Positions 1 to 5,187 of a DNA stretch of 60,972 nt are shown in pieces. Each line of letters begins with the position of its first letter. Position 1 is the first letter of the stretch. The position numbers were made by a program, and so were the translations under genes. The notes below the pieces were generated by a model. That model worked only from the letters and a program-made list of their open reading frames with translations. It searched no databases and had not been told where the DNA came from. The DNA is from Lachnospiraceae bacterium. Its GTDB lineage: Bacteria > Bacillota > Clostridia > Lachnospirales > Lachnospiraceae. Where the stretch lies: positions 1-60,972 of the forward strand of contig JAEEZH010000025.1 of NCBI GenBank assembly GCA_016288495.1, read 5' to 3'.

Positions 1-263
1 ATGCCTATAGTCCGATCCCAAAACTGCTCCATAAAAAGCTGGGTCTGGCTGGTCAGCCTCTCATCCTCTTCAAAACACGGAATACCGGGACTTTTAATGA
101 CATAGTCATAATCATCTATGTCAAAATCCTCCCTTTTCCCTTCAAACACAGTTATACGGCTGCCGGGACAATGCTCCTTAAGGAAAGCTTCAGTAGACTT
201 TCCTTCACGACCGTATCCCCAGATTAATAAACTTTTATCATTCAATTTTTGAAGTATTCCCAC
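1..263 (-). CDS. MurD-like Mur ligase, N-terminal part (runs off the window edge)
   Basis: Not in the ORF track. Minus-strand reading from GTG at 263: VGILQKLNDKSLLIWGYGREGKSTEAFLKEHCPGSRITVFEGKREDFDIDDYDYVIKSPGIPCFEEDERLTSQTQLFMEQFWDRTIGI. GYGREGKST and the VIKSPGIP motif are typical of MurD N-termini. The neighbouring murL-type gene suggests the MurD2 type. Confidence 0.75.
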   Translation of the reverse strand, partial: MGILQKLNDKSLLIWGYGREGKSTEAFLKEHCPGSRITVFEGKREDFDIDDYDYVIKSPGIPCFEEDERLTSQTQLFMEQFWDRTIG

Positions 264-396: not shown

Positions 397-1731
397 TCAG
401 CCAAGTGCACTTCTCAATTCTTCGGCAAAATCATCCGGCAGGTTATTCTCGTCATTCCATCCGTTTAAGATAGTGTCGATATCCTCCTTATCCGAAATCT
501 GATCACTGTACTTATCCGTCAGATACGAATGACCGCCTTTTTTGATGAAAGCCCCGAGGCTCGCAAGCACCTCTGACCGGGTGCCCACGCATTCAAAGGG
601 CTTCACCTCATCTATATCCGCCAGCTGTCTGAAGTAGGTTTCCATGGACTCCTTGTCAAAGAGATCCTCTCCGAAAATATCCCGCAGTTCCTCCACCGAA
701 AGAAAGGGGCTCAAAATAATATAGACAAACAGGCACTTTGGACAGTTACAACACCAGATACCCTTTTTGGAACCTGCATTACAGGATCTGAAGATTTTAT
801 GATACTTCTTCTGCTTGGAAAAGACATAAGCGATCTGTAACTCCGCCAGAGGACGCAGCAGACTGAAATAGGATATGGGCGTATCGACTATATGCGCCAC
901 ATACTCCCTGAAATCCTGCTCGAATTCAAAGCTCTTGGAATACTGATGGTTCACCTTTGAGCCCTTAACCGTAGACTCGTTGGCACTGGATTAATTTGAC
1001 AGGGCGATATACTTCATCCCGTTCAGATATGCAGTAATGACGGTGGAAAAAGCCAGCACCGCCGAAAAAGGAATATGCCCGTTAAGATATCCCTTCTGAT
1101 TCATCTCGATTATCTTTTTATCAAGAACGCGCTTTGCTTCTATAGGCTCTTCGCAGTGATCACAGACCTCCACACACTTCTTTGAAGCTTCCAGCGGATT
1201 CAGAAGATAAGGAATGATCCTTTCACCCTTCAAAGTCTCCAGGGATACCACCGAATCCTTGCCGCCGCCCACGGGAACCAGGATCCCGTCATACGCAGCT
1301 TCATCCTTCAACACCTTTACAGCTTCATCTTTCCGCGCCCTGATCTCCACCAGATCCTCTTCACTCACCTCTATGCCATTCACATACAAAAATTCCCCGA
1401 GGCCGTAATAAAAGAGCTTGCGCCACCATCTCACCTGCCACTCATCAAGCGCAGAACACTCCACCAGAATCGTCTTAGGACAGGTACACTTGTAATAGCT
1501 GATGGCTTCTGCCATTCCCAATGAAAAAATAAAGCGGTCCAATATCGCATCATCAATCACATCTGCTGCTTTTCGATCCCCCACCTTAAAATTCCATTTG
1601 GTCTCAAAGCTTTCAAGCCCGGTGATCTCATAGTGATATATAACCTTCAAAACTCCGTCTTCATAACTTTTCTCATAACGCGTGAATTTAAAATCGCTGT
1701 ATTCTTTTCTCAACTCATCAAATGAATGCAT
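397..1731 (-). pseudogene. murL: MurL-type UDP-MurNAc-L-Ala-L-Glu epimerase, split by an in-frame TAA (991-993) into ORFs 991..1731 and 397..954
   Basis: The two ORFs are in the same frame, separated by 36 nt (12 codons). The joint reads GMKYIALSN-*-SSANESTVKGSKVNHQYSKSFEFEQDF. The N-part has a PVGGGKDS motif, the C-part a cysteine cluster (CCNCPKC). Adjacent to a MurD-like ligase. Confidence 0.75.
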
Positions 1732-2434
1732 AAAGCTCCTCCAGCTTTTCTATCCTGTGATCTTCCCTCACATCTTCGAAATACGGTGCGTTTTCATATA
1801 CTCCGCCGCCTCTGATGATCCTCACCGTCTTTATGGGGATATTCCTGGAAATATAAAAATCCTTTTTCGGATTATCTCCCACATACATCATCTCACCGGG
1901 CTTGACAGCCAGTTCATCGCAAAGCAGCTCAAAGCCCTTCGCCGAAGGCTTGGCCCAGCCTTCGCCATGCTCTGCGCTTACCACTATCCCTTTTATCGCC
2001 GGGTGTTTATCCAGGCCCAGCGCTCTTATCTTGTTTCTCTGGGACACCGCGAAGCCATCGGTCAGAATGCCCGCTGCGATCCCCTTCTCGCACAGGGTCG
2101 ACAGAACATCCTCCACATCGTCATATGGCTTGTAGATCTCCCTGTCTATCTCATGTTCCCTGTACACCTTAACCAGAGAAAAAACCTCATCCTCCGTGTA
2201 CCCGTTCACACCATGCATATCCAGAAAACGGTTGAATACATTTTTGGCGCTCTCATGAAAAAGCGCCAGAAACTCCTCCCACAAAACCGCGGTATCCGAA
2301 CCTGCAAAATGCGCAAACACCCCGGTGTCACACTTTGCCAGATGTTTTGCCACAGCCGCAAATCCGCTTTTCACAAAAGAGTATTCACTTACCAGTGTAT
2401 CATCCAGATCAAAGATGATCGCCTTAGTCTTCAT
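1718..2434 (-). CDS. HAD-family hydrolase
   Basis: 238 aa; IIFDLDDTLV motif I and GDNPKKDF motif IV; overlaps the murL start. Confidence 0.85.
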   Translation of the reverse strand: MKTKAIIFDLDDTLVSEYSFVKSGFAAVAKHLAKCDTGVFAHFAGSDTAVLWEEFLALFHESAKNVFNRFLDMHGVNGYTEDEVFSLVKVYREHEIDREIYKPYDDVEDVLSTLCEKGIAAGILTDGFAVSQRNKIRALGLDKHPAIKGIVVSAEHGEGWAKPSAKGFELLCDELAVKPGEMMYVGDNPKKDFYISRNIPIKTVRIIRGGGVYENAPYFEDVREDHRIEKLEELYAFI

Positions 2435-2556: not shown

Positions 2557-5187
2557 TTAGGATCCAAGCCGGCGCTCAGCGTCCTCCACGCTCTCATAAC
2601 CGTAAAGTTTCGCAGTCTGCTCCATGGTCATATAAGCCAGATTCTTTCCCTCTCTCATAAGAGAAGTTATAAACTCTCCATACAGCGTAAGCATCATACC
2701 GGAATAAGTGGAAAGCTCTCCCCGCAGATATGTCTCATAGGATGTGTTGAAAGGAGTGTCCTCCGAGGTATGGATACTTCGCGCGTTTCCCGCAAAGGAC
2801 GGATATTCCTGCGCAAATTCCTCCATCCACTTTACCTGAATACCTACTATTGCCTCGATTATGGATTTTGTCTCCTCATCGATGACAGGAAATTCATCCT
2901 TTATCTTTTCCCATTCTTCGGGAGCCGTGCTCTCCTCCATACGGGCATATTTTTCGGATATGATATTGAGCCCGCTGCCATAAGCCAGCAGAAGATCCGT
3001 GGCAAACCTTACCAGCATCTCATGGGTCCAGTTATTATACTGGCTCAGTCTCATGATGGAAAAGGTACCCCAGTTATCCTGACACACTGCCCTGCCCCCC
3101 TCATTGGTCACCTCATCAAAAGCCGCATATTCAAGTTTGGCGATCTCCATGGGAAGATCTTCCTTCATGGCATCAAAAAATGAATAAAGCTTTTCCTCAT
3201 CCGGATATCTTTCCAGAATGTTTAAGAGTAATGCGCTTCTTTTTTCTTTTTCCATGTTTTTTCTCCGTTTTAAGCTTCTTCCTGTTGCTCCATTCATTAT
3301 CATTCCTGCCAGATCCTCAAGGTACACTTTTGTATTTTCAAAAGGGGCAGACTCTCCCGGCAAAGGAGCGGAAGCGGAAATAAATCCCGCCTCATATATT
3401 TTTTTCGCCAGATAGCAGGACAGTTCATTTACCGTGGCATCATACCCTGCAAAATCCTTTTCCAAAGGATCGGTGTTCAGCAGTTCCATTGCTTTCGCTC
3501 TTATCTCTTCCATCTTCCCGGGAATCCCGTCACCGGCATCTTTATCAGCACTTCCGTCCAATAAAGCATCACCTGCCATAATGGAAACCGCACTTGCCAT
3601 GAGCCATTTATCATGGGGCACAAATTTCCTGTTCAGATAATGACACAGCTTAAGAGCCTCCCTGAAACCATCGCCCAGTACCATTTCAAGCGAAACCTTA
3701 TCTTTTCTCAAGACCAGACGTCTCACATTATACTGGAGATTCTGCGAAAACAGAGCACAGCTCTGAGCCGTAAAGGCACGCCACAGATCATCGGGATAAC
3801 CATCCGCCACAAACCTTCTGAAGCCGCTCACATAAGCGCTCTCATCATAAAATATCTCACCGTTGACAAGGCAGCCCAATGAGATCTGGGAACAGGTACG
3901 CCACACTGTTTCAGCAGGGTCCGGACTTTTTGCATCAGAGCGCTCATTATCATAGAGTTCGATCAGCCGCTGCCCCTGTGCCTTCCCGACTATTTCCTCC
4001 ACAAAATCCTCAAAACAGAGCACGCCTGTCCTGCCCTGTCCCTGAGGCGTATTTCTTCTTTCATAACCTCTGAAGCTTTTGTCCAGAGTCTCATACCATT
4101 TTTTCAGATCCTGCGCATACAGCTCATGATCCTGCCGCCTGAGCCAGATGCACACTCCCGGTCCCCAGTCATGATCCCTGCTGTACACGTCATCAAAACC
4201 GTAACAGTCCGAACCGTACCCGAAAAGACCAAAGGCTGCTTTTTTCAAAATATCCGGATACTCTTTTTCCAGGGAAGGACGCACGACCTCTTCAAAATAG
4301 GCCCTGCAAAGCTTAAGTCCGAATCCGGCAGTCACATATCTTCCGGATCGTGACGGTCTGCCGTCATCGGTACTCCCGGTCTCATTTTGAATGAGTAGTT
4401 TTTCAACCTCATCCCTGAACTCCTTCACCCTGTAAAAATAATCAGTGCATCCGAAATTCTGATAGATGGCCGAAAGTGCCTTGTCAAAATATTCAGCCGC
4501 TCTGTCTAAATCTCCGGCTGCCTTTTCACACTCACCCAGGCCGGTCACGGCCGCAGCATAGTGGGTATCAAAAATATGTCTTCCCTCAAAAATAGCCACC
4601 GATTCATTGAGATGGGCCTTTGCTTTCTCCATATCCTTCTTTCCGTGCAGGATGGAATTACCCAGATTCGCATGGGTCACCGCCAGTTCAAAGGTATTGC
4701 CCTCACGGTGCTTTTCCACTATCTCAAGCGCTTTTTCAAGACGCAGGATCGCCTTCTCATAATCCTCCTGCTCCATATACACCAGGGACAGATTATTATA
4801 AAGGCCCGCAAAATCAAACGCGCCCGGCTCAAGCAATCTGTCATATATGGTCTCCACTTCATGATAGGCTGCAACCGCATCATCGAGAAGGCCCGCTGCC
4901 CGCTGCGCATTTGCCCGGTTGATCAGTGTCGTAGCGTACTCCTTTGTCCCGGACAGGCCCACGCTTTCCATGATGTCCAGCGTCTTATTTGAAAACAGGA
5001 TCGCTTCATCATAGCGGTTAACCTCACGGTAATATCCCACCAGCTCGTTAAGAAGGGTAAGCACAGCGCCGGTATCACCCTCGTTAACGGCAAGGGCAAG
5101 GTTCGAGGTCAGGAATTCCTCCGCCTCCCTTTCCCTGTGGTTGAGAACCATCTCATCATACTCTTTCAGGACCTTGTTGATATCCAT
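2557..5187 (-). CDS. Multidomain protein: N-terminal TPR region, central DUF4037-like nucleotidyltransferase-type region, C-terminal DUF4125-like region
   Basis: 876 aa; TPR-like helices at the N-terminus; GSDCYGFDDVYSRDHDWGPG resembles the DUF4037 catalytic-type motif; C-terminal region resembles DUF4125 from memory. Confidence 0.7.
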   Translation of the reverse strand: MDINKVLKEYDEMVLNHREREAEEFLTSNLALAVNEGDTGAVLTLLNELVGYYREVNRYDEAILFSNKTLDIMESVGLSGTKEYATTLINRANAQRAAGLLDDAVAAYHEVETIYDRLLEPGAFDFAGLYNNLSLVYMEQEDYEKAILRLEKALEIVEKHREGNTFELAVTHANLGNSILHGKKDMEKAKAHLNESVAIFEGRHIFDTHYAAAVTGLGECEKAAGDLDRAAEYFDKALSAIYQNFGCTDYFYRVKEFRDEVEKLLIQNETGSTDDGRPSRSGRYVTAGFGLKLCRAYFEEVVRPSLEKEYPDILKKAAFGLFGYGSDCYGFDDVYSRDHDWGPGVCIWLRRQDHELYAQDLKKWYETLDKSFRGYERRNTPQGQGRTGVLCFEDFVEEIVGKAQGQRLIELYDNERSDAKSPDPAETVWRTCSQISLGCLVNGEIFYDESAYVSGFRRFVADGYPDDLWRAFTAQSCALFSQNLQYNVRRLVLRKDKVSLEMVLGDGFREALKLCHYLNRKFVPHDKWLMASAVSIMAGDALLDGSADKDAGDGIPGKMEEIRAKAMELLNTDPLEKDFAGYDATVNELSCYLAKKIYEAGFISASAPLPGESAPFENTKVYLEDLAGMIMNGATGRSLKRRKNMEKEKRSALLLNILERYPDEEKLYSFFDAMKEDLPMEIAKLEYAAFDEVTNEGGRAVCQDNWGTFSIMRLSQYNNWTHEMLVRFATDLLLAYGSGLNIISEKYARMEESTAPEEWEKIKDEFPVIDEETKSIIEAIVGIQVKWMEEFAQEYPSFAGNARSIHTSEDTPFNTSYETYLRGELSTYSGMMLTLYGEFITSLMREGKNLAYMTMEQTAKLYGYESVEDAERRLGS

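What the first reader, a model, noticed from the sequence alone, without database searches (positions are those of the whole stretch)
397..1731. murL-type epimerase interrupted by one in-frame TAA at a conserved-looking motif
The two ORFs are exactly in frame, with 12 codons between them, and the joined protein is continuous (IALSN-*-SSANESTVKGSKVNHQYSK). A single G-to-T change (GAA to TAA) would restore one reading frame of about 443 residues. MurD2/MurL is a known alternative route for placing D-Glu in peptidoglycan (MurD2 adds L-Glu, MurL epimerizes it), so a break here would matter unless a MurI racemase exists elsewhere. Options are a real recent pseudogene, a sequencing/assembly error, split complementing fragments (the downstream ORF has a GTG start at 954) or read-through.
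Basis: partly seen in the sequence, partly recalled or inferred. Interest (0 to 1): 0.72.

Follow-up and report, generated by a model that had tools for sequence, protein, structure and literature searches.

The report
MurL gene with one stray stop
The bacterium carries the known cell-wall enzyme gene murL, which in this draft genome is cut by one stop codon at a residue that never varies in relatives; since the cell appears to have no other way to make this part of its wall, the stop is most likely an assembly error or a rare variant rather than biology.

Summary
[quoted passage not shown] Both halves match the MurL model, and the frame shows no other damage. The codon is Glu in all 80 named public relatives and in the 14 family relatives examined, inside the near-invariant motif SNExSxNE. 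MurL genomes of this family lack MurI (0 of 14, against 168 of 186 MurL-less genomes). The window's genome has no detectable MurI, second MurL or other MurD, so a fixed null would be expected to be lethal. The half after the stop is as constrained as the neighbouring genes (dN/dS 0.08). The window is one whole contig of an incomplete draft genome, and the stop lies 1 kb from the contig end, which also cuts murD2. The best reading is a consensus error or a minor-strain allele in an otherwise ordinary gene. A very recent real nonsense mutation is the main rival. Split function, read-through and code reassignment are disfavoured. Only the reads can decide.

The parts
994..1731 (-). murL, part before the stop (246 codons, ATG at 1731; GGGKDS motif at residues 155-160)
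   Evidence: NF041275 E 2.3e-27; GGAGGAG-type ribosome site ahead of the ATG
991..993 (-). in-frame TAA in place of a Glu codon (residue 247)
   Evidence: Translation; Glu in 80 of 80 named loci and in 14 of 14 family loci
397..990 (-). murL, part after the stop (197 codons and TGA); Cys residues 317, 327, 330 and 333 invariant
   Evidence: NF041275 E 1.3e-41; dN/dS 0.08 to G002
952..954 (-). first in-frame start codon (GTG) after the stop; an ordinary Val codon in the intact relative
1..263 (-). murD2, first 87 codons, cut by the contig end
   Evidence: 85% identical to the N-terminus of the G002 MurD2 homologue; contig ends at window position 1
1718..2434 (-). HAD-type hydrolase gene upstream, overlapping the murL start by 14 bases
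   Evidence: Pfam PF00702 E 8e-20; same gene order in G002 and G003

Best explanation
The gene is an ordinary MurL in the HAD-murL-murD2 gene row of a Lachnospiraceae bacterium. [quoted passage not shown] The TAA is not a fixed property of the organism: it is a consensus base error or a low-frequency strain allele captured in a draft contig near its end. In the living population the frame is read as one protein of about 443 residues. Shown here: homology, the invariant Glu, absence of a detectable MurI, second MurL or other MurD in the assembly, lack of decay, and the contig-end position. Inferred: that the stop is not fixed.
For: Glu at this codon in all relatives. One MurL, one copy of this DNA, no MurI and no other MurD/MurD2 in the genome. 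MurL and MurI exclude each other in the family (Fisher p 4e-13). No further lesion; dN/dS after the stop 0.08, as in neighbouring genes. Fragmented draft genome, 81.7% complete; stop about 1 kb from the contig end, which also cuts murD2. Spurious internal stops in draft assemblies are documented and rise at low coverage (PMC11017572).
Against: No reads could be inspected. The assembly is not visibly error-rich: 0 of 60 ABC-domain matches contain a stop, and the other genes scanned on the contig give full-length domains. About 18% of the genome is missing and could hold another D-Glu route.
Confidence: 0.7

Rival explanations
1. A real, very recent nonsense mutation: this strain has lost MurL and survives by another D-Glu route that was not assembled, or the mutation sits in a failing lineage.
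For: A single base difference from a Glu codon is enough; no general excess of stops in the assembly; a sister genome of the same genus uses MurI instead, so the route can be exchanged.
Against: No MurI, and no canonical MurD that could use D-Glu, was found; the MurL-bearing sister genomes G002 and G003 lack MurI too. MurD2 of X. oryzae uses D-Glu very poorly (PMC8788868), so scavenged D-Glu would not easily rescue.
Confidence: 0.22
2. The two fragments are both made (restart at GTG 954) and together form an active split MurL.
For: A GTG with a weak TAAGG ribosome-site-like stretch upstream exists; downstream constraint is intact.
Against: The second fragment would lack E247, S249, N251 and E252, invariant or nearly so in 80 loci. 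The GTG is a normal Val codon in the intact relative. No split MurL among the relatives.
Confidence: 0.03
3. The TAA is read through or means an amino acid in this organism.
For: The frame continues exactly, and downstream constraint is intact.
Against: TAA ends 22 of 47 ORFs of 100 aa or more called on the contig. None of the tRNAs found has a UUA anticodon (29 matches, set incomplete). No relative has a stop at this site.
Confidence: 0.03

Closest known systems
MurL (XOO_1319) with MurD2 (XOO_1320) of Xanthomonas oryzae (Feng et al. 2017, reviewed in PMC8788868)
   Same: Homologous over almost the full length; next to a murD-like gene whose G002 orthologue has Glu and Arg at the two L-Glu-specifying positions; no MurI in the genome
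   Different: Distant (252 bits against a Xanthomonadales-specific cut-off of 700); Lachnospiraceae host; one in-frame TAA here
Spurious pseudogenes of draft assemblies (Cooley and Wright 2024, PMC11017572)
   Same: Single internal stop in an otherwise intact, constrained gene of a draft genome
   Different: Cause not shown here, since reads were not available
PP-loop ATPases such as TtuA
   Same: GGGKDS motif; profile match to TtuA (E 0.003) and weak fold matches of the predicted model of the intact relative, consistent with AMP-forming activation
   Different: Below firm significance; membership is not claimed

Membership tests
[quoted passage not shown]
   Both halves match NF041275 over consecutive ranges; joined 252 bits, E 4.8e-75
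MurL, broad family | Neighbouring MurD2 with L-Glu-specifying residues | tested here: inconclusive
   murD2 is cut by the contig end before those residues; the G002 orthologue has Glu and Arg where E. coli MurD has D182 and K348 (residues as in PMC8788868)
MurL, broad family | Genome without MurI | tested here: met
   No TIGR00067 match in G000, with the caveat that the genome is 81.7% complete
MurL, broad family | Intact open reading frame | tested here: not met
   One TAA at 991-993; so the gene is filed as MurL-derived, not as a proven working MurL
MurL, broad family | ATP-dependent epimerase activity | not testable with these tools
   Needs enzyme assay
NCBIfam equivalog NF041275 (Xanthomonadales MurL) | Score over the curated cut-off of 700 bits | tested here: not met
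   252 bits; no genome of the family or class sample reaches the cut-off
Decayed pseudogene | Further disabling changes or relaxed constraint after the stop | tested here: not met
   No other stop or frameshift; dN/dS 0.08 after the stop, equal to neighbours

The most novel reading that the evidence does not exclude
A living Lachnospiraceae strain truly carries the stop in its only detectable D-Glu-making enzyme and still builds a wall, by read-through, by a split MurL or by an unknown route.
Probability: 0.06. Interest if true: 0.65.

Novelty: not a real feature. Interest (0 to 1): 0.15.

Why it matters
If real, loss of the only detectable source of D-Glu would point to a hidden wall-building route. 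As judged here, the use is a caution: a single stop in an essential gene of a draft genome should be checked against reads before it is called gene loss. The by-product, that MurL-MurD2 is widespread in gut and rumen Firmicutes and Bacteroidales and alternates with MurI inside one genus, is of more biological interest than the stop.

Tried and rejected
Genetic-code reassignment: rejected, because TAA is the commonest stop on the contig. Ochre-suppressor tRNA: none among the tRNAs recovered. A second intact copy on another contig: none. A canonical MurD or the rest of murD2 elsewhere: the MurD-model matches look like MurC, MurF, MurE and a second MurE-like protein (my reading of their sequences), and no MurD2 remainder was found. 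Elevated error load in this assembly: not seen, which slightly weakens the artefact reading. Solved structure of MurL: none found by sequence. A predicted model of the intact relative is confident (pLDDT 90.5), but its fold matches are weak and only suggest a PP-loop-like core. One search failed on a wrong frame and was repeated correctly.

Full report
OBSERVATION. The minus strand of window 397-1731 holds one reading frame of 443 sense codons plus an internal TAA (991-993) and a terminal TGA (397-399). The part before the stop has 246 codons and the part after it 197; the first start codon after the stop is GTG 952-954, 12 codons on. Both parts match the NCBIfam MurL model over consecutive ranges, and a six-frame search of the genome reports one match with '1 TAA' inside.

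WHERE IT LIES. The window is the whole of contig C63 of a fragmented genome: 2.66 Mb, 236 contigs, completeness 81.7%, contamination 6.3%. The stop is about 1 kb from the contig end, and the end itself cuts the next gene, murD2, after 87 codons. The upstream HAD-type gene overlaps the start of murL by 14 bases. The order HAD-murL-murD2 is the same in G002 and G003, with intact murL.

THE CODON. In 14 orthologues from the same family and in 80 named public loci from Lachnospiraceae, Bacilli, Clostridia, Oscillospiraceae and Bacteroidales the residue is Glu without exception; in the 80 it is written GAA (54) or GAG (26). The two sets overlap, since some of the 14 are the same genomes as some of the 80. 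The residue lies in the motif SNExSxNE, directly after a predicted strand of a core that carries the invariant GGGKDS motif. Weak matches to TtuA and other PP-loop ATPases fit the AMP-forming chemistry reported for MurL (PMC5808125). A role of this Glu in the active site is an inference.

IS THE FUNCTION NEEDED? In the published pathway MurD2 adds L-Glu and MurL epimerises it, in bacteria without MurI (PMC8788868). In 200 genomes of the family, none of 14 with MurL has a MurI over the curated cut-off, against 168 of 186 without MurL (Fisher p 4e-13, not corrected for kinship). G000 has no MurI, only one MurL and one copy of this DNA, no other MurD or MurD2, and only a weak transaminase match. 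MurD2 of the nearest relative carries the Glu and Arg that specify L-Glu in X. oryzae (PMC8788868). A fixed loss of MurL should therefore be lethal unless the missing 18% of the genome hides another route.

HAS THE GENE DECAYED? No. There is no second stop or frameshift. Pairwise dN/dS to G002 is 0.11 before and 0.08 after the stop, against 0.075-0.083 for three neighbouring genes (HAD, TPR gene, ksgA). This speaks against an old pseudogene but cannot exclude a very recent mutation.

BASE RATE. Only the window's copy has a stop among the MurL genes of the class survey (16 positive genomes of 391). Spurious internal stops in draft assemblies are well documented and rise at low coverage (PMC11017572). 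Against a bad assembly in general, none of 60 ABC-domain matches in G000 contains a stop. One isolated false stop in a 2.7 Mb draft genome is still unremarkable, and this case was picked by a reader looking for oddities.

ALTERNATIVES. A split MurL restarted at GTG 954 would lack four residues that are 99-100% conserved, and the GTG is an ordinary Val codon in the intact relative. Read-through or a changed code is disfavoured because TAA ends 22 of 47 long ORFs called here and no UUA-anticodon tRNA was found (tRNA set incomplete).

VERDICT. A gene of a known kind in a known pathway, with a stop that is most likely a consensus error or minor allele (0.70), less likely a very recent true null (0.22), with small probabilities for split function or read-through. 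'Not a real feature' refers to the interruption, not to the murL gene. Reads at position 993 decide.

Noticed in passing
genomes G000-G003 (same genus): G000, G002 and G003 have MurL and no MurI; G001 has a full MurI (E 1e-80) and a transaminase-like match (E 3.6e-62) but no MurL: the route to D-Glu differs inside one genus.
   Followed up: partly
L036-L115: MurL homologues are common in gut and rumen Lachnospiraceae, Bacilli, Clostridia and Bacteroidales (406 confirmed stretches), groups not listed among the MurL bearers in PMC8788868 or PMC5808125.
   Followed up: partly
L083 (ORF of 892 aa): A natural MurL-MurD2 fusion in one frame, in an uncultured Bacilli genome. G225 has its MurL match in a 1019-aa open frame, perhaps another fusion.
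   Followed up: partly
L023:16878-18392 (+): The G002 MurD2 homologue carries a C-terminal CPCC cysteine-rich domain, not tested in the others.
   Followed up: no
window 2560-5187 (-) against L023:11732-14634: The TPR/DUF4037/DUF4125 gene is one 876-aa frame in the window but split in two frames in G002, so the relative has a break of its own.
   Followed up: no
G000:C38 and G000:C152: Two different MurE-like ligases, each directly preceded by a similar protein of 530-550 aa; a duplicated pair, or contamination of the genome.
   Followed up: no
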